Assembly (NCBI RefSeq): GCF_010550675.1
Contig: NZ_JAAGOA010000015.1
Location: forward strand, 124,001-188,000
Reading direction: 5' to 3'
DNA from: Phytoactinopolyspora halotolerans
Lineage (GTDB): Bacteria > Actinomycetota > Actinomycetes > Jiangellales > Jiangellaceae
DNA: 64,000 bases
Each line of letters starts with the position of its first letter. The first letter of the stretch is position 1. The notes beneath the pieces are model-generated. The model searched no databases. It saw nothing but the letters and a program-made list of their open reading frames with translations, and had not been told where the DNA came from. Shown piece after piece: positions 37,478-50,580 of this stretch. The position numbers were made by a program, and so were the translations under genes.

Positions 37478-38773
37478 ATGACACTCTCTTCCACGCCTCT
37501 CTGGCCTGCACCGACAGCAGCCGGGCCGGTCGATGCGACCGTCCGCCTGCCCGGCTCGAAATCGGTCACCAACCGGGCGCTGATCCTCGCGGCGCTGGGC
37601 ACGGCGCCGTCGTTGATCCGTCGTCCGCTGGACGCACGCGACACCCGGCTGATGGCCGCGGCTCTGCGCGTCCTCGGAGCCGAGGTCGCCGAGGAGGCCG
37701 ACGGCTGGCGGGTGACACCGGCGACGTTCGCCTCCGGCGGCACCGTCGACTGTGGCCTGGCCGGCACCGTCATGCGGTTCGTCCCGCCGGTTGCCGTCTT
37801 GGCCGACGGCGACGTCCACCTCGACGGCGACGAGCATGCCCGGGTCCGGCCGATGGAGGTCATCATCTCCGCACTGAAGACGCTCGGTGCGGACATCGAC
37901 GACGCCGACGGGCAGCCGGGTTTCCTGCCGCTGACCGTCCGCGGTTCCGGCGCGCTGCCCGGCGGCAAGGTCACCATCGATGCCTCGGCGTCGTCGCAGT
38001 TCGTCAGCGGTTTGCTGCTTGCCGGCGCCCGCTACGAGCGTGGTCTGACGGTCCTGCACGACGGCAAGCCGATCCCGTCGACGCCGCACATCCAGATGAC
38101 GGTGGGCATGCTCCGCGAGCGTGGCGTCGAGGTGGACGACACCGAGCCGGACACCTGGCGGGTCCTGCCTGGACCGATCGCCGGCTTGGACACCGTCGCC
38201 GAACCGGATCTGTCCAACGCGGCGCCGTTCCTGGCGGCCGCGATGGTGACCGGCGGCGTGGTACGCGTCTCCGGTTGGCCGTCGGCGACCGCCCAGCCCG
38301 GGGATCAGCTGCGTGACCTGCTGAACCGGATGGGCGCGCGGTGTGAGCTCGCCGACGGAGTGCTCACCGTGACCGGCTCCGCCATCCACGGCATCGACGC
38401 GGACCTGCACGACGTGGGTGAGCTGACCCCGGTCATCGCCGCCATCGCCGCGCTGGCCGACTCGCCGTCGCACCTGCGTGGCATCGCGCACCTACGGGGC
38501 CACGAGACCGACCGGCTGGCAGGGCTGGCGGCCGAGATCAACGGCCTGGGCGGCGACGTCACCGAGACCGACGACGGCCTGACCATCCACCCGCGGCCGC
38601 TGCACGGCGGCGTGTTCGCCAGCTACGACGATCATCGGATGGCCCAGGCCGGCGCCGTCCTGGGACTCGCCGTCCCCGGCGTCCAGGTGGAGAACATCGC
38701 GACCACCGCCAAGACCCTCCCCGAGTTTCCGAGCATGTGGGCCGAGCTGCTCGAGCTGGAGCGCGCAGCGTGA
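37478..38773 (+). CDS. aroA: 3-phosphoshikimate 1-carboxyvinyltransferase (EPSP synthase)
   Basis: A 431-residue enzyme of the shikimate pathway that joins shikimate-3-phosphate and phosphoenolpyruvate. Visible are the phosphate-binding [15 protein letters not shown] near 24, the [12 protein letters not shown] block near 90, [12 protein letters not shown] near 110, [11 protein letters not shown] near 168, and [13 protein letters not shown] near 385. The start ATG has AAGGG upstream. Its stop overlaps the rsgA start (GTGA), so the two are coupled, an order conserved in actinobacteria. Confidence 0.96.
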
Positions 38774-39786
38774 GTCCCCGGCGGCGCCCGTCGTACGACG
38801 AGAGCGACGTCAGGGTCCGCCCCGGCCGCGGCTCGCGGCCACGCAGCAAGATCCGCCCCGCCCATCGCAACGCGGTCGCCGGGATGGTGATCGCGGTGGA
38901 CCGAGGGCGCTACACCTGCGTCACCGGGGAGGGCCGCATCGTGGTCGCGATGACCGCACGCGAGCTTGGCCGGGGCGCCGTGGTGGTGGGCGACCGGGTC
39001 GGTCTGGTGGGCGATGTCTCCGGCCAGGAAGGGTCGCTGGCGCGCATCGTGCGGGTGGAGCCCAGGGAGTCGGTGCTGCGCCGCACCGCGGACGACGACG
39101 ATCCGATCGAGCGGATCGTGGTCGCCAACGCTGATCAGATGGTGATCGTCACCTCGGTGACCGATCCGGAACCGCGGCCGCGGCTGATCGACCGCTGTCT
39201 GGTGGCCGCCTTCGACGCCGGGATGGACCCGCTACTGTGCGTGACCAAGGCCGATCTCGGCGATCCGGCGCCGCTGCTGGACAGGTACGCGCCGCTCGAT
39301 ACCCCGGCGGTGGTCACCTCACTGAGCGACAGCGATGTCCCGCCGCGCTCGCTGGACGAGCTCCACGGTGAGCTGCACGGCCGCACCAGCGTGCTGGTCG
39401 GCCACTCCGGCGTCGGGAAGTCGACACTGGTGAATGCGCTGGTCCCCGGGTCGGACCGGGCGACCGGCGCGGTCAACGTGGTCACCGGCCGGGGCCGGCA
39501 CACCTCGACCAGCGCGGTCGCGCTGCGGCTCCCCGGCGAGGGCTGGGTGATCGACACCCCCGGGATCCGTTCGTTCGGGCTCGCGCATGTCGATCCGGAC
39601 ACGTTCATCGATGCCTTCTCGGACCTGGCCGAGGAGACGGACGCATGCCCGCGCGGTTGCACGCACGGCTACCAGGAGCCGGAATGTGCGCTCGACGACG
39701 CCGTCGCCGCCGGCCGGCTCGCACCCGAGCGCGTGGAGTCCTTCCGCCGGCTGCTGTCCAGCCGGGAGCGGCAGGCCGGCGACTGA
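38770..39786 (+). CDS. rsgA: Ribosome small-subunit-dependent GTPase A
   Basis: A 338-residue circularly permuted GTPase that checks late 30S assembly. An OB fold lies at about 35-110. The G motifs are CVTKADLG (G4) near 157, then [14 protein letters not shown] (G1) near 215, then [10 protein letters not shown] (G3) near 262. The C-terminal zinc-finger residues C-P-R-G-C-T-H and PEC are near 295-310. The GTG at 38770 overlaps the aroA stop. The stop codon itself lies inside a 24-bp tandem duplication. Confidence 0.95.
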
Positions 39787-39828
39787 ACGCCCGCACCGGA
39801 CACTGACTGAACGCCCGCACCGGACACT
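39781..39828. repeat. 24-bp perfect tandem duplication at the rsgA stop codon
   Basis: A 24-bp unit beginning GACTGAACGCCCGCACC is present at 39781-39804 and again at 39805-39828, followed by a partial third copy. The first copy contains the rsgA stop. It looks like a recent slippage event between rsgA and hisN. Confidence 0.85.
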
Positions 39829-39877
39829 GACCGGACGCCACGCCCACCGTCGGCGCGGAACGCGCTACATTCTGCGG

Positions 39878-40660
39878 GTGGCCCACGATGACGACCTGAG
39901 GTTCGCGCATGTTCTCGCGGATGACGCCGACGCACAGACGCTGTCCCGGTTCCGCGCCGAAGACCTGCGGATAGAGACGAAGGACGACGACACACCGGTC
40001 ACCGATGCCGATCGTGAGACCGAGGAGGCGATCCGCCGGACGCTGTCCCGGGCCCGTCCACGGGACAGCATCGTCGGCGAGGAGTTCGGCACCGACGGGT
40101 ACAGCGCGCGCCGGTGGGTGATCGATCCGATCGACGGGACCAAGAACTACGTGCGCGGCGTCCCGGTGTGGGCAACGCTGATCGCGCTGATGGTCGAGGA
40201 CAAGGTGATGGCCGGCGTGGTGTCGGCTCCGGCTCTGAATCGGCGCTGGTGGGCGGCGCGGGGCTCCGGGGCGTGGACGGGGCGCTCGCTCTCGGCCGCG
40301 AGCCGGTGTCGCGTCTCCGACGTCGCGTCGCTGGCCGAGGCCTCGCTCTCCTACTCCGACCTGGAGGAATGGGAGTCGCGCGGTGCGCTGCCGCGATTCC
40401 TCGATCTGACCCGGGCCTGCCGGCGCACCCGCGCGTACGGCGACTTCTGGTCCTACATGCTGCTGGCCGACGGTGCCGTGGACATCGCGACCGAGCCCGA
40501 GCTGGCGCTGCACGATGTCGCCGCGCTGATCCCGATCGTCGAGGAGGCCGGCGGCACGTTCACCGATCTGGCCGGCAAACCCGCCGCGTACGGCGCCGGG
40601 GCGGTGGCGACCAACGGCCGATTCCACGACGAGGTGCTCGCCTACCTCTCCGCCGGCTGA
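39878..40660 (+). CDS. hisN: Histidinol-phosphatase of the inositol monophosphatase family
   Basis: A 260-residue metal-dependent phosphatase. Metal ligands sit in IVGEEFG near 70 and the signature WVIDPIDGTKNYVRG near 82-96; a later ALHDVAALIPIVEEAGG block is near 215. Position after rsgA and overall similarity point to HisN, which removes phosphate from histidinol phosphate in actinobacteria. Inositol phosphatase activity cannot be excluded. The GTG at 39878 gives the family start. It overlaps the convergent MFS gene by 19 bases. Confidence 0.88.
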   Translation: MAHDDDLRFAHVLADDADAQTLSRFRAEDLRIETKDDDTPVTDADRETEEAIRRTLSRARPRDSIVGEEFGTDGYSARRWVIDPIDGTKNYVRGVPVWATLIALMVEDKVMAGVVSAPALNRRWWAARGSGAWTGRSLSAASRCRVSDVASLAEASLSYSDLEEWESRGALPRFLDLTRACRRTRAYGDFWSYMLLADGAVDIATEPELALHDVAALIPIVEEAGGTFTDLAGKPAAYGAGAVATNGRFHDEVLAYLSAG

Positions 40661-42180
40661 GCCTCTGGCAGCGGTGTCCTGCGGAGCAGGACGGTCACGA
40701 CGACGGCGGCGACGGCCAGTGTGGCGGCGCCGACGAGCGCGGTGGTGTTGATGCCGTGGACGAAGGCGTCCTGCGCCTGCTGAACCAGCACCGTCGCCGA
40801 TGAGGACGGCAGCTCTTCCGCGATGGCCACCGCGCCGCCGAGCGTTCCACCCGCCGTGTCGGCCGCCTCGGGTGACAGGTTCTGCGGGAGCGCGTCGCGG
40901 ATCTCGTTGCTGTACACCGCCGAGGCGATGCTGCCGAGCGTCGCGATGCCCAGCGCTCCGCCGAGCTCGGAGCCGGTCTCGTTCACGGCTGCCGCGGCGC
41001 CCGCGTTCTCCGCCGGTGCGGTGGCGATGACCATGTTGTACGCCATCGACAGGGCGGTGCCCATGCCGAACCCCAGCACGCTGTACCCGGTGATCAGTGT
41101 GGCGATCGAGTCGCCCGCGCTCAGCTGGGTGAGCGAGCCGAAGCCGACGGCCGCCACCGCCAGGCCGGCGCCCACCACCAGGCCGGGCCGGATCCACCGC
41201 ACGGCCACGGTGCCGAGCGAGATCCCCACCATCATCACCGCCACCATCGGCAGCATCCACAGCGCGGCGACCACCGGCCGATAACCCATCACCAGCTGCA
41301 TGTGCTGCACCACGAGCATGCCGACACCGGCGCTGGCCAGCACCAGGATGAGGTTCACCCCGATCGAGGCGGAGAACGCGGGGAACCGGAACAGGCCGAC
41401 ATCGAGCAGCGGGTCGGGACGCGATCGCTGCCGTCGCACGAACAGATAGCCGAGGAGCACGCCGACGACGATCGCCAGCGCCGGCACCGGTTCCCAACCG
41501 TACTCGGCCAGTTCCTTCAAACCCCAGATGGCCGCCAGCACGGCGCCCATGGCCAGCGCGGCGCCGGACAGGTCGAACCGTCCCGGTCGTGGGTCCTTGT
41601 ACTCCGGCAGCAGCACCGGCGCGAGCACCAGCAGCGCCACCATCACCGGGATGTTGATCAGGAAGACCGATCCCCACCAGAACCGCTCGACCAGCAGTCC
41701 GCCGATGATCGAGCCGAGGGGGAATCCGGCGCTGAACGAGCCGGTCCAGATCGCGACGGCACGACGGCGTTCGGCGTCGTCGTGAAACATGTTGCGGATC
41801 AACGCCAAGGTCGACGGCGCCAAGGTGGCACCACCGACGCCGAGCAGCGCGCGGGCGATGATCAGCATATCCGCACTCGTCGAGTAGGCGGCCAGCAATG
41901 AGGCCGCGCCGAAGGCCACGGCACCGAACATCAGCAGCTTCCGCCGCCCGATCCGGTCGCCGAGAGTGCCCATAGTGAGCAGCAGGCCGGCGATGAAGAA
42001 CCCGTAGATGTCCATGATCCACAGCAGCTGCGTCCCGCTGGGCTCCAGGTCCGCACTGAGCCAGGGCACCGCCATGAACAGCACGGAGAGGTCCATCGAT
42101 GCCAGCAAAGCCGGCAGGACCAGGACGGCGAGCCCAAGCCACTCCCGTCGGCCCGCACGGTAGGTGATCTCGTGTGTCAT
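40642..42180 (-). CDS. MFS multidrug transporter, DHA2 (EmrB/QacA) family
   Basis: A 512-residue 14-helix exporter. Motif A (GTLGDRIGRRKLLM) follows helix 2 near 75, and the motif-C-like GSFSAGFPLGSIIGGLLV is near 152. The helix-1 segment contains the conserved Asp of ASMDLSVLFMAVP near 30. It should expel hydrophobic or cationic drugs by proton antiport. The ATG at 42180 has a poor ribosome site and may be near-leaderless. It is divergent from a TetR gene across 13-bp direct repeats, the usual arrangement for ligand-induced efflux. Confidence 0.93.
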   Translation of the reverse strand: MTHEITYRAGRREWLGLAVLVLPALLASMDLSVLFMAVPWLSADLEPSGTQLLWIMDIYGFFIAGLLLTMGTLGDRIGRRKLLMFGAVAFGAASLLAAYSTSADMLIIARALLGVGGATLAPSTLALIRNMFHDDAERRRAVAIWTGSFSAGFPLGSIIGGLLVERFWWGSVFLINIPVMVALLVLAPVLLPEYKDPRPGRFDLSGAALAMGAVLAAIWGLKELAEYGWEPVPALAIVVGVLLGYLFVRRQRSRPDPLLDVGLFRFPAFSASIGVNLILVLASAGVGMLVVQHMQLVMGYRPVVAALWMLPMVAVMMVGISLGTVAVRWIRPGLVVGAGLAVAAVGFGSLTQLSAGDSIATLITGYSVLGFGMGTALSMAYNMVIATAPAENAGAAAAVNETGSELGGALGIATLGSIASAVYSNEIRDALPQNLSPEAADTAGGTLGGAVAIAEELPSSSATVLVQQAQDAFVHGINTTALVGAATLAVAAVVVTVLLRRTPLPEAQPAER

Positions 42181-42189
42181 GGCCGGAAT

Positions 42190-42215
42190 TATACGTTCGT
42201 CTTATACGTACGTCT
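42190..42215. promoter_or_regulatory. Direct-repeat operator of the MFS/TetR divergent promoter
   Basis: TATACGTTCGTCT (42190-42202) is followed at once by TATACGTACGTCT (42203-42215), a 13-bp tandem with one mismatch. A TATAAG -10-like box for the TetR gene lies at about 42225. The adjacent TetR protein is the likely binder. Confidence 0.55.
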
Positions 42216-42246
42216 AGCACGGCTGTATAAGGTAGGGTACGGAGCC

Positions 42247-42858
42247 ATGGGGCACCGTGAAGACCTGCTCGAAGGCGCCAAGCGCTGTCTGTATGAGAAG
42301 GGCTACGCACGCACGACGGCGCGCGACATCGTCGCCGCTTCGGGCACCAACCTCGGCTCCATCGGCTACCATTTCGGCTCCAAGGAAGCGCTGCTCAACA
42401 CGGCCTTGATCGAGGCCATGCGAGATATGGCCCGCGAGTTCACCAGGCTCAGCGCAGAGGATCTCAGCGATCTCGGCTGGGAGGACATGGCGACGGGATG
42501 GACGCGTGTCGTCGGCAGGTTCGACGAGTACCGCCCCCTCTTGGTGTCGCAGATCGAGGCGTGGGCCCAAGCCGAGCGCTCGGAGGAGCTACGGACGCAA
42601 CTCGCCGAGCACTACCAGCAGGAGATCACACACGGCGCCACCCTGACCCGGCAGTACTACGACACGCCGGACGACCGCACCGCCTGGGCGGTTTCCGCCG
42701 TCATCACCGCACTGGCCGACGGCCTCGTCCTGCAGTGGCTGATCGATCCCGGACGGGCGCCGAGCGGACGGGACGTGGCGACCGCACTGCGGGCCGTGGC
42801 ACGTGCCGCCAACCGGTCGGAACACGACACAGACAAGGACTCCTCCGCGGAGTCGTGA
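42247..42858 (+). CDS. TetR family repressor of the divergent MFS exporter
   Basis: A 203-residue TetR regulator. The DNA-binding domain is at about 3-55 (REDLLEGAKRCLYEKGYARTTARDIVAASGTNLGSIGYHFGSKEALL). The ligand domain follows with ITALADGLVLQWLIDP near 160. The ATG at 42247 is chosen as the family start; the longer frame begins in the promoter. Its position opposite the DHA2 exporter and the shared direct repeats support local drug-responsive repression. Confidence 0.93.
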   Translation: MGHREDLLEGAKRCLYEKGYARTTARDIVAASGTNLGSIGYHFGSKEALLNTALIEAMRDMAREFTRLSAEDLSDLGWEDMATGWTRVVGRFDEYRPLLVSQIEAWAQAERSEELRTQLAEHYQQEITHGATLTRQYYDTPDDRTAWAVSAVITALADGLVLQWLIDPGRAPSGRDVATALRAVARAANRSEHDTDKDSSAES

Positions 42859-42959: not shown

Positions 42960-42992
42960 CGTCATACCCGGCACACAGTTCCGTCATGACGG
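42960..42992 (+). promoter_or_regulatory. Paired CGTCAT element upstream of the sigma-fusion operon
   Basis: CGTCAT occurs at 42960-42965 and 42982-42987, start to start 22 bp. The second is inside the 12-bp palindrome CCGTCATGACGG (42981-42992). The distance to the start codon at 43036 is 54 bp. The same pair, spacing and distance recur before the WhiB-like gene at 47027. It is probably a promoter or twin operator. Confidence 0.6.
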
Positions 42993-43035: not shown

Positions 43036-43863
43036 GTGCGCCACGTGTCGGGGTGCAGCCGGCAGCGTGGGCCGGCGGGGACGCTTGCGGCGTCTTGGCT
43101 GGCCCACCTCCACGGCGACTACACACAACTGGACGACCTGATCCCACCGCCCGGCGTGGACGCCGTACTCGAAACCCTGGCCGAAGCGAGTCCGTCGCCG
43201 GAACGGATCGCCGAGGCCCTGACGACGTACGCCTGGGACTCCATATCCGACAATTCGGATTTAACGTGCGCATTGGACGATGTCGATGCGCTATGGAGCA
43301 TTCTGGAATCCAACGGCCATCCACCCATATCCCGGAACCGGGCGCGACATATCGTCACCGACGCGTGGGTCGACGCGGTTGCGGCGAATCGAGCCTCTCC
43401 CGGAATCGACGCCCTTTCCGGGCTCCACACGATGGGGTACTTGCTTGGCCGCATATCCGAACTCGACCGTTTGACTGACGACGAGGCGGCACCTCTGGTA
43501 GTTCTAGTGGTGACCTGGCATGAGCCCGCAAGCCCGTGGGAGCGGATCTCGTGCATCCTCCAGGTGGCCTCGGCACTCCAGGATCGGGTGCGCGCGGAAG
43601 CCACATTGAGTCAATTCGGGACACACTGCGCAGTAGCCTTAGTTCCGGACGATAACCGCGCTCGACTCGAGAGGGGCAGCTTGACAAAAAGGCTCAATAC
43701 TGGAGAACTCAGCACGTTTGGCTTCGACGTCGACCTGATCCCACTACCAGAAAATCGGTCTCATGTAACTGAACTAATCGTACGACTTCAGGACGGATCA
43801 ATGGTCGGCGACAAATCTGGTCCGATTGGCCGGTTCCCTCACGACTGGAACTCCCTAGACTGA
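43036..43863 (+). CDS. Unknown protein encoded just upstream of the sigma-fusion gene
   Basis: A 275-residue soluble protein with no signal peptide or membrane helix and no family I recognise. It is acidic and apparently helical, with ASWLAHLHGDYTQLDDLIPP near 20 and repeated Leu/Ala helices to about 200, then a beta-like tail (LSTFGFDVDLIPLPENRSHV). The GTG at 43036 has AGGAGGG eight bases upstream. The last 200 bases are noticeably less GC-rich than the neighbours, which may mean recent acquisition. It ends 31 bases before the sigma-fusion gene and is probably on the same transcript. Confidence 0.72.
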   Translation: MRHVSGCSRQRGPAGTLAASWLAHLHGDYTQLDDLIPPPGVDAVLETLAEASPSPERIAEALTTYAWDSISDNSDLTCALDDVDALWSILESNGHPPISRNRARHIVTDAWVDAVAANRASPGIDALSGLHTMGYLLGRISELDRLTDDEAAPLVVLVVTWHEPASPWERISCILQVASALQDRVRAEATLSQFGTHCAVALVPDDNRARLERGSLTKRLNTGELSTFGFDVDLIPLPENRSHVTELIVRLQDGSMVGDKSGPIGRFPHDWNSLD

Positions 43864-43894: not shown

Positions 43895-46783
43895 TTGACC
43901 ACACCAGCTGAAGCGCCGAGCGACGCCGAACTCATCGCGCGCACTCGCGACGGCGATATGAACGCCTATGACGAGCTGTACCGCCGTCATTACGACGACG
44001 CGTCGCGCGTTGCCCGGATCGTGACCAACAACAGCGACGAGGCTCAGGACGTCGTCGCCGAAGCCTTCACCCGCGTACTGACCCGGATCCGCGAAGGCGG
44101 CGGACCGGAGGCCGAGCTGACCCCGTACCTGCGCACGGTGGTGCGACGGCTCGCAGTGGACCGGCACCGGAGTGCACAGCGCGACGGCCAGCCGACGGAC
44201 CAGGCCATCCTCGAGATCCTGCCGCGCACCGACGACCCGATGGCCCGCGCCACCGACCGCGAGCTCGTCCGTCAGGCGTTCGAGACGCTGCCGGACCGCT
44301 GGCAGCAGGTGCTCTGGCACACCGAGATCGAGGGCCGCTCGCCCGCGTCGCTCGCGGCGACGCTGGGCAGCACGCCGAACGCGGTGGCTGCGCTGGCATA
44401 CCGAGCCAGGGAAGGGCTGCGTCAGGCGTATCTGGCCGTCAACCTGTCGTCGGACGTGCGGCCCGAATGCCGGCCCTACGCTCCGAAGGTCGCCGCGTAC
44501 GTCCGGGGCACGCTCTCCGCGCAGCACACCCGCGCCGTCACCACACACCTCGGCGAGTGCGAACACTGCCGGGAACGTCGCGACGAACTGCTGCTGCTGG
44601 TCTCCGACCTGCGTGGCACATTGTGGCCCGCGCTGCTGCTGCCCGCCACGGCCGGCACCGCGGTCATCGCCGGAGCCGCCGCCACTGGAGCGGCGGTCGC
44701 CGGGGCGGGAGCGGCTGGTGCCGGGGCTTCCGCAGGAGGCGGCGCCGCGGCGGATCCCACTTCCACGGCCGTGCTGGCCGGCACCGGGGCGGCCGCCGCC
44801 GGCACTGCCACCACGGGTTCTGGCGGCGGTGCCGCGGCCGGAACGGGGGCGGCCGCGGGTGCGGGCGCCGCGAGCGGCGCCTCGTCCGGATCGGGCGGAG
44901 GAGCACTGTCGGTGCTCTCGCCCGGCCGGCTGGCCCGGATGGGCAGCAAGACACTTGCCGGTGCGGCCGGTGTGGTAGCGGCCGGCATCATCGCGGCAGG
45001 CGCGTACATGATGCTCAGCGGCTCATCGGACGATCCGCCGAACGTCGCGGGTCCGCCGACGTCCGAGATGGGCGGTCCGGACGGCGGCGGCGACGCGCCT
45101 GCTTCCGATTCCACCGGTTCGACCGGTGGCCCGACCCAGGACTCCGAATCCGAGACTGATCCGACGTCGCCACCGACCGACCCCGCCGACACACCGCCGC
45201 CGTACTCTCCGGACGCGGTGCCGCCGAGCGACGGTGGCAACCTGCCGATCAGTTTCCCGCGCCCGACGACACAGGATCCGGAGTCGCCCTCGGCCGACCC
45301 GGAGACGCCGAGCGACCCGGACGATCCGACGCAGACCCCGGACGACGAGCCGGACGAGACACCCGATGAGACTCCGGATGAAACCCCGGATGATCCGGAC
45401 ACCAGTCCGCCTCCGGACAACGACGAAGAGACGTCGGCCCCGACGGTGCGCAGCGGCCCGCAGAACACGACAGCCCGAGCCGGCCAGCCGACGACGCTCA
45501 CCGTCGACGTCGCCGGCAGCCCGGCACCATCGTTGACCTGGCAGTACCGGGATCCGTCGTCGGCGTCCAGCGCGAGCGGCAGCTCGGTGACGATGTCGCC
45601 GGCCAGCGGCGGCTGGAGCGACATCTCCGGTGCCACCTCGTCGAAGCTCACTGTCACGCCCAAGCCCGAGCACGACGGACGCCAGTACCGGGTTGTCGCG
45701 AAGAACGCGCATGGCACCGTGACCACCGATCCGGCCGTCCTGACCGTGCACTACGCACCGCACAAGGTCTCCGGACCGGACAGCGCCAACGTGAACGAGG
45801 GCGGCAGGGTGACCTTCACCGCCTCGGCCGAGGCCAACCCCGCGCCGAGCAGTGTCACCTGGCAGCGGAAGGCACCCGGCGGTTCGTGGCAGAACACCGG
45901 TGCCGGCAGCACCAGCCAGCGCGGAACGAAGACCACGCTGGAGGTGTCCGGGGTCGATCGGGACCAGCACAAGTACGAGTACCGCGCGGTCTTCAAGAAC
46001 GACATCGGCGAGGCCAGCACCGGTGCAGCCCAACTGACCGTGAACTGGGCGCCCGCGATCGAGCGGAACCCGTCAAGCGCACACGCCTCCACAGGCAGCA
46101 AAGCCACCTTCGAAGCGAAAGCGGAGGCGGGCAATCCCAGCACGACCAAGGCCCGGTGGCAGATCAACGAGGGCAACGGCTGGAAAGACCTCGGCGTCAC
46201 TTCCCAAGGCACCACGGCTACGTTGACGGTGGATGTCACGAGCGCGAGCCAGGATGACAATCAGTATCGCGTCGTCTTCGAGAACTCGATCGGCGGCGCG
46301 GAAAGCAGCCCGGCCACGCTCAACGTCGAGGCCAATACCAGCGGTTCGATCAGTACCACCGCATCGGGCGGGCACCACAATCTATGCGTCCAACCCACCG
46401 GAAGCAGCGATTCCATTCAACTGGAGAGCTGCTCGGATCCGCCTGATTGGGATGTCTATACCGAGTATGAAGATGCCGGGCCCAACGGACACGCCGTCCG
46501 TTGGGCCGATGGCCGTTGTCTGAGCGTCTCACCTACACCCGACCAAGATGGCGCGCGCAACTTCCCCGTGGAGTTGCGGCCGTGCAGCACCCCAGTGCCG
46601 TCCTCTGACCAGCTCTGGCAGTTCGATCCGTACGCCAATGGTGCACAGCGGTTCCTCACGACATTTCCCGGGCTGGGCACCGAGGTCTGTCTCGACGTGG
46701 AGGGTGGCACCATCACCAGCGGCTCCCGGCTGATCGCATACGCCTGCCACGGCGGCGCCAATCAGAAGTTCAAGTTCCGCTAG
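43895..46783 (+). CDS. Membrane-anchored ECF sigma factor fused to zinc anti-sigma motif, Ig-like domains and ricin-type lectin
   Basis: One 962-residue protein. Sigma region 2 is at about 22-95 (MNAYDELYRRHYDDASRVARI, YLRTVVRRLAVDRHR) and region 4 at about 123-182 (QAFETLPDRWQQVLWHTEIEG, SLAATLGSTPNAVAALAYRAREGL). A zinc anti-sigma-like motif follows with C192 and H218-x3-C222-x2-C225. After an Ala/Gly-rich stretch (245-335) a membrane helix lies at about 352-375. An Asp/Pro/Thr-rich tether (378-515) leads to three Ig-like domains (about 516-618, 619-718, 719-812) and a ricin-B-type trefoil (815-962). This suggests surface carbohydrate sensing wired to transcription in one chain, perhaps released by proteolysis. 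The start is TTG at 43895. Fused membrane ECF groups have been reported in actinobacteria. Confidence 0.88.
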   Translation: MTTPAEAPSDAELIARTRDGDMNAYDELYRRHYDDASRVARIVTNNSDEAQDVVAEAFTRVLTRIREGGGPEAELTPYLRTVVRRLAVDRHRSAQRDGQPTDQAILEILPRTDDPMARATDRELVRQAFETLPDRWQQVLWHTEIEGRSPASLAATLGSTPNAVAALAYRAREGLRQAYLAVNLSSDVRPECRPYAPKVAAYVRGTLSAQHTRAVTTHLGECEHCRERRDELLLLVSDLRGTLWPALLLPATAGTAVIAGAAATGAAVAGAGAAGAGASAGGGAAADPTSTAVLAGTGAAAAGTATTGSGGGAAAGTGAAAGAGAASGASSGSGGGALSVLSPGRLARMGSKTLAGAAGVVAAGIIAAGAYMMLSGSSDDPPNVAGPPTSEMGGPDGGGDAPASDSTGSTGGPTQDSESETDPTSPPTDPADTPPPYSPDAVPPSDGGNLPISFPRPTTQDPESPSADPETPSDPDDPTQTPDDEPDETPDETPDETPDDPDTSPPPDNDEETSAPTVRSGPQNTTARAGQPTTLTVDVAGSPAPSLTWQYRDPSSASSASGSSVTMSPASGGWSDISGATSSKLTVTPKPEHDGRQYRVVAKNAHGTVTTDPAVLTVHYAPHKVSGPDSANVNEGGRVTFTASAEANPAPSSVTWQRKAPGGSWQNTGAGSTSQRGTKTTLEVSGVDRDQHKYEYRAVFKNDIGEASTGAAQLTVNWAPAIERNPSSAHASTGSKATFEAKAEAGNPSTTKARWQINEGNGWKDLGVTSQGTTATLTVDVTSASQDDNQYRVVFENSIGGAESSPATLNVEANTSGSISTTASGGHHNLCVQPTGSSDSIQLESCSDPPDWDVYTEYEDAGPNGHAVRWADGRCLSVSPTPDQDGARNFPVELRPCSTPVPSSDQLWQFDPYANGAQRFLTTFPGLGTEVCLDVEGGTITSGSRLIAYACHGGANQKFKFR

Positions 46784-46951: not shown

Positions 46952-46984
46952 CGTCATGACGGTTCTGCGTCAGCGTCATGTCGG
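46952..46984 (+). promoter_or_regulatory. Paired CGTCAT element upstream of the WhiB-like gene
   Basis: CGTCATG occurs at 46952-46958 and 46974-46980, start to start 22 bp, as GCGTCATGACGG and GCGTCATGTCGG (11 of 12 identical). The second lies 53 bp before the start codon at 47027. This matches the pair upstream of 43036. An A-rich tract precedes it. Confidence 0.6.
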
Positions 46985-47026: not shown

Positions 47027-47305
47027 ATGACCGCCATGATCGACATCAGTGAGATGCATGCCCGCGACTGGTTCGGGCAGCAGGAGAGCTGGCGTGCGTT
47101 CGCTGCCTGTCGCGGCATGGACACCGACCTGTTCTATCCCGAAGGGCGCGGGAGCACACTCCGCAAGCGCGAAGCCGTCGCCAAGAACGTCTGCGCCTCC
47201 TGCCCAGTCGCGGCGCAGTGCCGGGATGCCGCCTCCCAACAGCCGGAGAGATTCGGCATCTGGGGCGGTCTCACCGAAGGTGAGCGAGGTTGGGCCCGGC
47301 GCTGA
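47027..47305 (+). CDS. WhiB-like iron-sulfur transcription factor
   Basis: A 92-residue Wbl protein with cluster cysteines C28, C56, C59 and C65, the GIWGG turn at 77-81 and TEGERGW after it. It lacks the basic tail of WhiB1, so it belongs to another Wbl class, which I cannot name. The ATG at 47027 has AGGGGG ten bases upstream. It lies just behind the sigma-fusion gene and shares its paired CGTCAT element, so it may belong to the same regulon. Confidence 0.9.
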   Translation: MTAMIDISEMHARDWFGQQESWRAFAACRGMDTDLFYPEGRGSTLRKREAVAKNVCASCPVAAQCRDAASQQPERFGIWGGLTEGERGWARR

Positions 47306-48483: not shown

Positions 48484-50400
48484 TCAGTACCGGTAGGTCG
48501 AGGCGCGGTTCCCGTAGCGGTCATAGAGACGCCCGACATCGCCGTCGTTGTTCCAGATCGGCGAGTTGTACCCGAGGTAGATGTGCCCGGTGCGCTGGGA
48601 ACCGGAGCCCGTGTGGATCCGCACGGACTTGCCTGGGCTCAGCGTATAACTCGGCAGCGACTTGCGCTGAGGTGTCGCGTCGAGCGTCCAGTCCTTCAGG
48701 TTGATGGTGACCGACCCGGTGTTCTTCACCACGGCGTACTCGTCGTTGAGGTTGTGCCAGTCGTTGCCCGCCGCGTCATAGTGGATACTGGTGATCTTGG
48801 CCGCGTAACGGACCACCGTCTTACTGCTCGACGCGGCCGAGTAACGCCGATCGGTTGCGGGCACACGCACCCGGTAGGTGTACTTGCCGGTGCTGCTCGG
48901 CTTCACGCTGAAGCTGTAGGCACCACTCGACGACGGCTTCTTGGTCGACACGGTGCGCCACGTTCCCGAGACGCGGCGCTGCAGTTGCACAGTCTGCTTC
49001 GAGTAGTACGGGCTGACCGTGCCCTTGAACGTCGTCGTGCGCCCGAGCAGTCCGGAAAGCCGCGACGTCGTCAGAGTCAGCGCCGCGCGCACACTCACCC
49101 GGGTGACCGGGCTCTTGGAATACCCGTAGGACGTGTTGGATGAATGCACCAGGCGGTATTCGGTGTGCCGGGACGGCTTGGCCGTGAAACTCACCCGCCC
49201 GGTGCTACTGGTGTTCTTCGAGCTCACCGTGGTCCACGACGTCGCACCGACAAAGCGCCGCTGGAATGTCACCTTCTCGCCGCTGACGTTGACCCCGTCA
49301 CCGGTGCGCAGCCGCCCGGATATCGTCACGGACTTCCCCGCGGTGATGGTGGAGTTGGAGCGGGCGATGGACAGCGTGGTGGGCTGCTGTACCAGGACCG
49401 TCTTCGAAGCGCTGGTGGACCCGGCATACGCATCCGACTGAGCATGGCGCAGCCGATACTCGACGTGCTTGGACGGCGTGCGGGCGAAACTCACCCGCCC
49501 GGTGCTGCCGGTGTCTTTCGTCGTCACCGTCTTCCAGGTCGTCGTCCCGGGATACCGGTACTGCAGTGACACCGGGCGGCCCGGCACCGCACTGGACGAC
49601 GAGGTCAGCTTGCCGCTCACGGTGACCGTCTGCCCACGCTTGATGGTGCCGTCGTCGACGGCGATGGAGAGCGTGGTCGGCTGCCGGACGTCGACCCTGG
49701 TGATATCGCTGATCTGACCGCCATACCGGCCAGTGGCCTCATAGCGCAGCCGGTACTGCGTGTGCTTGCTCGGCTTGGCGGTGAAGCTCACCCGCCCTGC
49801 GCCGTCCGTGCTCTGGGTACCGTGCGTCGTCCATGACGTCACACCGACGAAGCGCCGCTCGAGCACCACGGATTCTCCGGCCACGGTTGATCCGTCGGTG
49901 GTCCGCAGCTCTCCGGTGAGGGCGACCGTGTCTCCGTGGTCGATCAGGCTCGCGCTGCGTTGGATCGTCAGCGTCGTCGGCTGTTGCTCACACGCGCCGC
50001 TGTCGACGACGGTCTCGAGCAACGACGAGCCGCCCTGGCTGACGACGACCGTGTCCGACTGCGTCGGCGCCGTGACGGCGATGCTGTGCAGAAACTCGGT
50101 GTCTCCGCTCGCTTCGGTGGTGTCGAACGCGACATCGTCGTCCGGCTGGACAGCTGCGCCGTTGACCGTGACGTCGTAGGCATAACCAGGAGCGAGGACA
50201 AGGCGCAGCAGGTTCGTGTTGTGCTGATTGACGGGCGTGTACACACACTCGTCCCTCAGCTCCACCACGCTGGGATCCGCTTCAGTGGGCTCCTCAGCGG
50301 CCGTGGACGCCGTCGCCCCTATCCCGACGACGAGCGCCGACGTCACGATCAATGCGCATAGACGACGAACGCACCCAACCAGCCGCGCATCAGCGAACAC
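48484..50400 (-). CDS. Secreted protein with four 100-residue Ig-like repeats and a C-terminal lamin-tail domain
   Basis: A 638-residue secreted protein. The signal peptide covers about 1-36 (VRRLCALIVTSALVVGIG, cleavage near STAA-EEP). A Cys-containing N-terminal domain reaches 138. Four beta-sandwich repeats of about 100 residues (near 139, 239, 339 and 439) share PTTLSI, SGKL, RVSF and PSKHTEYRLRH motifs. A lamin-tail domain (about 534-638; AKITSIHYDAAGNDWHNLNDEYAVVKNTG) closes it. LTD domains occur on bacterial surface proteins and nucleases; no catalytic domain is present here, so an adhesive or structural role is likely. The GTG at 50400 follows GAGGGG. Confidence 0.87.
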   Translation of the reverse strand: MFADARLVGCVRRLCALIVTSALVVGIGATASTAAEEPTEADPSVVELRDECVYTPVNQHNTNLLRLVLAPGYAYDVTVNGAAVQPDDDVAFDTTEASGDTEFLHSIAVTAPTQSDTVVVSQGGSSLLETVVDSGACEQQPTTLTIQRSASLIDHGDTVALTGELRTTDGSTVAGESVVLERRFVGVTSWTTHGTQSTDGAGRVSFTAKPSKHTQYRLRYEATGRYGGQISDITRVDVRQPTTLSIAVDDGTIKRGQTVTVSGKLTSSSSAVPGRPVSLQYRYPGTTTWKTVTTKDTGSTGRVSFARTPSKHVEYRLRHAQSDAYAGSTSASKTVLVQQPTTLSIARSNSTITAGKSVTISGRLRTGDGVNVSGEKVTFQRRFVGATSWTTVSSKNTSSTGRVSFTAKPSRHTEYRLVHSSNTSYGYSKSPVTRVSVRAALTLTTSRLSGLLGRTTTFKGTVSPYYSKQTVQLQRRVSGTWRTVSTKKPSSSGAYSFSVKPSSTGKYTYRVRVPATDRRYSAASSSKTVVRYAAKITSIHYDAAGNDWHNLNDEYAVVKNTGSVTINLKDWTLDATPQRKSLPSYTLSPGKSVRIHTGSGSQRTGHIYLGYNSPIWNNDGDVGRLYDRYGNRASTYRY

Positions 50401-50580
50401 CACGAATCCCCTCGTTCCCTCTCCACCCAGCACCGGCCCACCCCTTTGGCCCGGCGACGTCACACGCCGCTCACGAGCACTGATCGTGCACCTTATCGGA
50501 GGGGCGGCACGCACAATAGGGACCAAAGACTCTGGTAGAGCGCCTGGGGTGCCCGCGATCTGGGGACGCCAGGTGACGGA

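What the first reader, a model, noticed from the sequence alone, without database searches (positions are those of the whole stretch)
43895..46783. One-protein surface sensor: ECF sigma factor fused to its own zinc anti-sigma motif, a membrane helix, Ig-like domains and a ricin-type lectin
Seen: sigma regions 2 and 4 (about 22-182), C192/H218/C222/C225, a single strong membrane helix near 352-375, an Asp/Pro-rich tether, three Ig-like domains and a C-terminal ricin-like trefoil. Known: ECF sigma factors are normally held by separate membrane anti-sigma factors; fused membrane forms are reported for a few actinobacterial groups. Inferred: a sugar or wall polymer binds outside, and the sigma domain is released inside by conformational change or proteolysis. 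The combination of Ig repeats with a lectin on a sigma factor is unusual.
Basis: partly seen in the sequence, partly recalled or inferred. Interest (0 to 1): 0.88.

Follow-up and report, generated by a model that had tools for sequence, protein, structure and literature searches.

The report
Membrane sigma factor with lectin sensor
A soil actinobacterium makes a single protein that appears to reach from the cell surface, where it carries antibody-like and sugar-binding domains, to the gene-reading machinery inside; the class is known, but this outer part is found only in one bacterial family, and an inactive signalling-enzyme relative encoded next door looks like a dedicated partner.

Summary
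ORF 43895-46783 is one intact 962-aa protein: ECF sigma regions 2 and 4, an HxxxCxxC zinc anti-sigma domain (all four ligands invariant in 70 relatives), one likely membrane helix (about 353-376), an acidic Pro-rich tether, three I-set Ig domains and a C-terminal ricin-type trefoil. Orthologues with the same ectodomain occur across Jiangellaceae, so a sequencing fusion is excluded. It is a new variant of a known class: fused, membrane-anchored actinobacterial ECF sigma factors (ECF48/52/53; studied member SCO4117, ECF52). Of 48 sampled relatives in other families all keep sigma plus zinc domain and none has I-set or ricin. The gene directly upstream (43036-43863) is a GGDEF-fold protein without the catalytic motif. 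In 297 genomes all 45 strong hits to it lie beside a fused sigma gene. A promoter-like pair, CGTCAY-N16-CGTC, precedes this operon; its core GTCA-N17-CGTC is upstream in 41 of 76 relatives, against 1-7 for other spacings. The same pair precedes the downstream WhiB gene, a predicted target. Proposed mechanism: glycan or wall sensing outside, cis-inhibition by the zinc domain inside, release by proteolysis or rearrangement, with the pseudo-GGDEF protein as second input. Ligand, release step and partner binding are inferred.

The parts
43895..46783 (+). Fused ECF sigma / zinc anti-sigma / membrane helix / 3 Ig / ricin-type lectin protein, 962 aa, TTG start
   Evidence: conserved start column
43958..44185 (+). 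sigma region 2 (residues 22-97)
   Evidence: Pfam; PDB sigma matches
44261..44440 (+). sigma region 4 (residues 123-182)
   Evidence: Pfam; 90% identity in family
44468..44572 (+). zinc anti-sigma domain zf-HC2 (residues 192-226; C192, H218, C222, C225)
   Evidence: invariant in 70 relatives
44615..44914 (+). Ala/Gly-rich linker (residues 241-340) with a weaker hydrophobic stretch at 245-274
   Evidence: poorly conserved, 52% gap
44951..45022 (+). main transmembrane helix (residues 353-376), positive-inside flank
   Evidence: hydropathy and charge
45023..45430 (+). acidic Asp/Pro-rich tether (residues 377-512; 37 D/E, 1 K/R)
45431..46333 (+). three I-set Ig-like domains (residues 513-614, 615-714, 715-813)
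   Evidence: Pfam; AF2 ectodomain model pLDDT 88.7; Foldseek titin/Robo
46334..46780 (+). ricin-type beta-trefoil (residues 814-962); six Cys, three likely disulfides; last repeat CBM13-like
   Evidence: Pfam; xylanase CBM13 1knl E 1.9e-10
43036..43863 (+). pseudo-GGDEF partner gene, 275 aa, ends 31 bp before the sigma start (operon-like)
42960..42985 (+). promoter-like motif CGTCAT-N16-CGTC upstream of the pseudo-GGDEF/sigma operon
47027..47305 (+). WhiB-family gene, syntenic downstream of the sigma gene in Jiangellaceae; predicted target
   Evidence: Pfam; synteny
46952..46977 (+). same promoter-like motif upstream of the WhiB gene (-75)

Best explanation
A membrane-tethered, autoinhibited ECF sigma factor. 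Inside, the zinc domain directly behind sigma region 4 masks the sigma regions in cis. One helix and an acidic Pro-rich tether carry three Ig spacers and a ricin-type lectin out through the cell wall. Binding of a glycan or wall polymer, or loss of that binding, changes the ectodomain; regulated proteolysis or rearrangement then frees the sigma portion. The freed sigma reads promoters of the form CGTCAY-N16-CGTC, which include its own pseudo-GGDEF/sigma operon and, in Jiangellaceae, the neighbouring whiB gene. The co-encoded pseudo-GGDEF protein is a dedicated cytoplasmic partner, probably an interaction module that shifts the sigma/zinc-domain balance rather than an enzyme. Shown by sequence: domain order, zinc ligands, linkage, motif. 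Inferred: cis-inhibition, ligand, proteolysis, partner binding, promoter use.
For: Domains and zinc ligands. TM and charge asymmetry: 70 of 76 relatives more positive before the helix. Extracellular character: six paired Cys only in the trefoil, AF2 ectodomain model pLDDT 88.7, Ig folds. Conserved sigma/zinc (79-90% identity) against a fast-changing ectodomain (25-47%). Sigma plus zinc module in 48 of 48 relatives with swapped ectodomains. Pseudo-GGDEF beside sigma in 55 of 76 named loci and in 45 of 45 strong hits. Motif with fixed spacing: 41 of 76 loci at spacer 17 versus 1-7 at others, 39 of 55 GGDEF-linked versus 2 of 21 not. Precedents: SCO4117 (PMC5826349); an inactive GGDEF domain binding a sigma factor and antagonising its anti-sigma (RmdB/sigma-WhiG, PMC13232838).
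Against: No experiment exists for this protein. The sigma/zinc model has low global confidence (pTM 0.43), so masking of the sigma surfaces was not shown. The lectin is partly degenerate (first repeat lacks QxW; Jiangella lost the third Cys pair), so it may bind protein or nothing. The second hydrophobic stretch could alter topology. The motif could belong to another regulator; it differs from the motif published for SCO4117 (CSGYN-17-SRHA, also only predicted). In Jiangella the WhiB -10 half reads TGTC.
Confidence: 0.6

Rival explanations
1. The fused sigma is controlled only by the extracellular domain, as proposed for ECF52; the pseudo-GGDEF gene is merely a co-regulated target or a hitch-hiking neighbour.
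For: ECF52-type proteins are modelled this way (PMC5826349, PMC8999054); many relatives (for example L046, L047, Kocuria, Arthrobacter) lack the neighbour.
Against: The neighbour never occurs away from the sigma gene in the sampled genomes (45 of 45 strong hits adjacent), and adjacency survives a change from divergent to co-directional order.
Confidence: 0.25
2. The ectodomain is mainly a wall anchor or adhesin and the real signal is cytoplasmic (redox or zinc state of the zinc domain, or the pseudo-GGDEF partner).
For: Ectodomain evolves fast and is replaced or reduced to a Pro-rich tail in many relatives; trefoil sites partly degenerate; zinc anti-sigma domains such as RsrA respond to redox (PMC4960319 abstract).
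Against: All Jiangellaceae orthologues examined keep the Ig plus trefoil arrangement with conserved Trp and Cys.
Confidence: 0.2
3. The conserved motif is the site of an unrelated regulator and the sigma domain is not functional.
For: The motif was never tested; SCO4117 has a different predicted motif.
Against: Rigid hexamer-16-CGTC spacing with a CGTC -10-like half is promoter-like, and sigma residues are strongly conserved.
Confidence: 0.08

Closest known systems
ECF52, SCO4117 of Streptomyces coelicolor (PMC5826349)
   Same: One protein with ECF sigma, zf-HC2 zinc finger, membrane segment, Pro-rich region and C-terminal carbohydrate-binding domain; Actinobacteria only
   Different: Carbohydrate domain is NPCBM (smart00776), not Ig plus ricin; NPCBM-bearing relatives L046/L047 form a separate clade and lack the pseudo-GGDEF neighbour
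ECF48 and ECF53 fused groups (review PMC8999054)
   Same: C-terminal fusion of a ZAS domain with one or two TM helices, predicted activation by proteolysis
   Different: Group models are not held here, so assignment is untested; no Ig/ricin ectodomain or pseudo-GGDEF partner found described in the searched papers
IutY of Pseudomonas putida (ECF243, per PMC8999054)
   Same: Sigma and anti-sigma in one membrane protein; proteolysis releases sigma
   Different: Gram-negative iron/xenosiderophore signalling system
RmdB / sigma-WhiG / RsiG (PMC13232838)
   Same: A catalytically inactive GGDEF domain binds a sigma factor and antagonises its anti-sigma
   Different: Separate proteins, sigma-WhiG is not an ECF, RmdB also has an active EAL domain; only a mechanistic precedent

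Membership tests
Fused membrane ECF sigma factors (ECF48/52/53 type) | ECF sigma regions 2 and 4 | tested here: met
Fused membrane ECF sigma factors (ECF48/52/53 type) | zinc anti-sigma domain fused C-terminal to sigma | tested here: met
   zf-HC2 above cut-off; HxxxCxxC in 70/70
Fused membrane ECF sigma factors (ECF48/52/53 type) | one or two TM helices after the zinc domain | tested here: met
   hydropathy only, no trained topology predictor
ECF52 (SCO4117) | Pro-rich extracytoplasmic region | tested here: met
   residues 377-512
ECF52 (SCO4117) | C-terminal NPCBM carbohydrate-binding module | tested here: not met
   I-set x3 plus Ricin_B instead; NPCBM found in L046/L047
ECF52 (SCO4117) | phylogenetic grouping with NPCBM-type members | tested here: inconclusive
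   Jiangellaceae and NPCBM rows are separate clades, each SH-aLRT 100, but deep branches are open; SCO4117 itself not held
ECF52 or ECF53 group | match to the published ECF group models | not testable with these tools
   group HMMs not held
Canonical ECF sigma plus separate membrane anti-sigma | anti-sigma encoded by a separate adjacent gene | tested here: not met
   zinc domain in cis; neighbours are pseudo-GGDEF and WhiB genes
Ricin-type beta-trefoil / CBM13 | Pfam PF00652 above cut-off | tested here: met
   33.6 bits against 29
Ricin-type beta-trefoil / CBM13 | sugar-binding function | not tested
   last repeat resembles xylanase CBM13; first repeat degenerate
GGDEF diguanylate cyclase (gene 43036-43863) | GGDEF fold homology | tested here: met
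   profile vs PDB FimX E 2e-6; hhalign 94-96%; Pfam alone finds nothing
GGDEF diguanylate cyclase (gene 43036-43863) | GG[D/E]EF catalytic motif | tested here: not met
   absent in 40/40 rows

The most novel reading that the evidence does not exclude
A two-input sigma receptor: a membrane-tethered sigma factor inhibited in cis by its own zinc domain, gated from outside by an interchangeable glycan/wall-sensing ectodomain (Ig plus ricin in Jiangellaceae) and from inside by a dedicated pseudo-GGDEF protein that binds sigma or zinc domain. A self-recognised promoter class (CGTCAY-N16-CGTC) drives the partner and, in Jiangellaceae, a WhiB regulator.
Probability: 0.35. Interest if true: 0.75.

Novelty: new variant of a known kind. 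Interest (0 to 1): 0.52.

Why it matters
Fused membrane sigma factors are widespread in actinobacteria but barely studied; how they are released and what they regulate is open. This family offers a stable sigma/zinc core with exchangeable sensors, a conserved partner gene not mentioned for this class in the papers searched, and a promoter motif, so inhibition, release, ligand and regulon become directly testable. If the pseudo-GGDEF protein acts on the sigma factor, it would add a second case of an inactive GGDEF domain controlling a sigma factor.

Tried and rejected
Sequencing fusion of two genes: rejected, 16 orthologues share the order. The shortened copy in P. endophytica (405 aa) has undetermined bases (X) in the Ala/Gly linker and its ectodomain is present further on, so it is an assembly gap. 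Whole-protein search of relatives failed twice on the server and was replaced by N-terminal, profile and ectodomain searches. Two Pfam calls failed on wrong coordinates and one alignment used a wrong L028 stretch (repeated in 27). Reading the upstream gene from Pfam or NCBIfam alone failed; only the family profile showed GGDEF homology. The conserved CTAGACTGA just before the sigma start looked like a -10 box but is the end of the upstream reading frame. Genome-wide motif counts (103 sites, control 14) are too unspecific to list a regulon.

Full report
What is there. Window 43895-46783 (+) is a 962-codon ORF starting at TTG. Pfam finds Sigma70_r2, Sigma70_r4_2 (just under cut-off), zf-HC2, three I-set domains and Ricin_B_lectin; NCBIfam adds TIGR02937 above its cut-off. 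C192, H218, C222 and C225 are invariant in 70 relatives and HxxxCxxC is present in all 70. Hydropathy gives a main helix at about 353-376 with K/R before and only D/E after; a weaker hydrophobic stretch lies at about 245-274. 70 of 76 named relatives are more positive before the helix than after it, which favours inside-to-outside single-pass topology. No trained topology predictor was available.

Not an artefact. The window lies in a 7.3 Mb genome. The nearest named matches are Phytoactinopolyspora endophytica (98% over residues 1-240) and P. alkaliphila (94%), then Jiangella, so the source is a Jiangellaceae bacterium, most likely Phytoactinopolyspora. The N-terminal search matched 19 of 22 family genomes, the window's own included; the two without any hit are incomplete (75-81%) and the third, G012, has the ectodomain at a contig end. 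The same domain order holds in 16 orthologues, most 880-1015 aa. Identity to the window protein falls from 85-90% (sigma regions) and 79% (zinc domain) to 37-47% (Ig) and 28% (trefoil). One orthologue (L040) has a fourth Ig unit.

Ectodomain. AlphaFold2 on residues 505-962 gives mean pLDDT 88.7, all beta; Foldseek matches tandem Ig structures such as titin I67-I69 and Robo1. The trefoil has six Cys at spacings that suggest one disulfide per repeat; the third pair is missing in Jiangella. Its last repeat resembles xylanase CBM13 (1knl, E 1.9e-10); the first repeat is degenerate. Sugar binding is plausible, not shown. A search of 297 genomes of the class with the ectodomain profile finds the full arrangement only in this family; other hits are Ig stretches in unrelated long proteins.

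Sigma/zinc module. The model of residues 1-258 has pLDDT 76 but pTM 0.43; its sigma regions match ECF sigma structures, including sigma/anti-sigma complexes, but the mutual placement is unreliable, so masking by the zinc domain is an inference from zinc anti-sigma families.

Relatives. A genome-collection scan gave 80 named loci from many actinobacterial families, cut at 80. In 48 of these outside Jiangellaceae every protein has Sigma70_r2 and zf-HC2 and none has I-set or ricin; ectodomains are Pro/Thr-rich tails or DUF11, CARDB, NPCBM-associated, Big_9 or cadherin-like domains. Two further relatives (L046, L047) carry NPCBM, the architecture described for SCO4117 (PMC5826349). In a quick tree the Jiangellaceae rows form one clade (SH-aLRT 100) and the NPCBM rows another; deeper branches are unresolved. 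The class is thus known, ECF48/52/53 by description (PMC8999054), with an exchangeable sensor.

A dedicated neighbour. The gene 43036-43863 ends 31 bp before the sigma start and is present in the same place in all family loci examined. Pfam finds nothing, but a 40-row profile matches GGDEF structures (FimX, E 2e-6) and hhalign to bona fide GGDEF domains gives 94-96% probability while controls give under 1%. None of the 40 rows has a GG[D/E]EF motif. In 55 of 76 named loci outside the family a homologue lies next to the sigma gene, on the opposite strand. In 297 genomes there are 45 strong hits (E 1e-41 or better); comparing coordinates, 44 lie within about 0.5 kb of a fused-sigma hit and the last, G102, was checked separately and is also adjacent. 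Weaker hits are ordinary GGDEF proteins. In the searched literature I found no mention of this linkage. A precedent exists for an inactive GGDEF domain binding a sigma factor and displacing its anti-sigma (PMC13232838).

A promoter-like motif. Aligning upstream regions revealed CGTCAT-N16-CGTC before the pseudo-GGDEF/sigma operon in the Jiangellaceae loci aligned. In 76 named loci the core GTCA-N17-CGTC occurs within 330 bp upstream of sigma in 41, against 1-7 for other spacings from 12 to 23; 39 of 55 GGDEF-linked and 2 of 21 unlinked loci have it, covering 19 genus-level labels; in the 39 linked loci it reads towards the GGDEF gene in 28, towards sigma in 5 and both ways in 6. These loci are related, so the counts are not independent events. 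In the 64 kb window the CGTCAY form occurs twice: at 42960 and at 46952, 75 bp before the WhiB gene. The GCGTCAT half is conserved before whiB in all 18 sequences compared, with CGTC as the second half in 6 of 6 Phytoactinopolyspora-group sequences and TGTC in the others. WhiB is therefore a predicted target, and the operon is predicted to be self-regulated.

Mechanism. The best-supported reading is a cis-inhibited membrane sigma factor released by an extracellular event, with a pseudo-GGDEF partner as a second, cytoplasmic input. Sequence shows the parts, linkage and motif; ligand, release, masking and partner binding are inferred. Two rivals remain open: the partner is only a co-regulated target, or the ectodomain is mainly an anchor.

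Verdict. The ectodomain alone would be a modest novelty; the linked pseudo-GGDEF gene and the motif raise the interest.

Noticed in passing
window 43036-43863: Pseudo-GGDEF protein invisible to Pfam; found only next to fused sigma genes in the sampled genomes.
   Followed up: yes
window 46952-46977 and 47027-47305: WhiB-family gene preceded by the same motif as the sigma operon; syntenic in Jiangellaceae, not found near the fused sigma in the other families.
   Followed up: partly
window 37478-40660: aroA-like, rsgA-like and inositol-monophosphatase-like genes upstream; the monophosphatase gene also lies about 5 kb downstream of the fused sigma in many Pseudonocardiaceae and Nocardioides loci.
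   Followed up: partly
window 48484-50526 (-): 680-aa likely secreted protein with bacterial Ig-like repeats and a C-terminal Lamin Tail Domain.
   Followed up: no
window 40642-42858: Divergent TetR regulator and MFS transporter, lost or moved in some relatives.
   Followed up: no
L084, L086, L095, L082: Fused sigma relatives of 1540-1770 aa with long repetitive ectodomains, for example about 1460 aa in a Nocardioidaceae MAG.
   Followed up: partly
G096:C6:43867-45090: A 1262-aa frame in another family has tandem Ig stretches close to this ectodomain without a sigma match.
   Followed up: no
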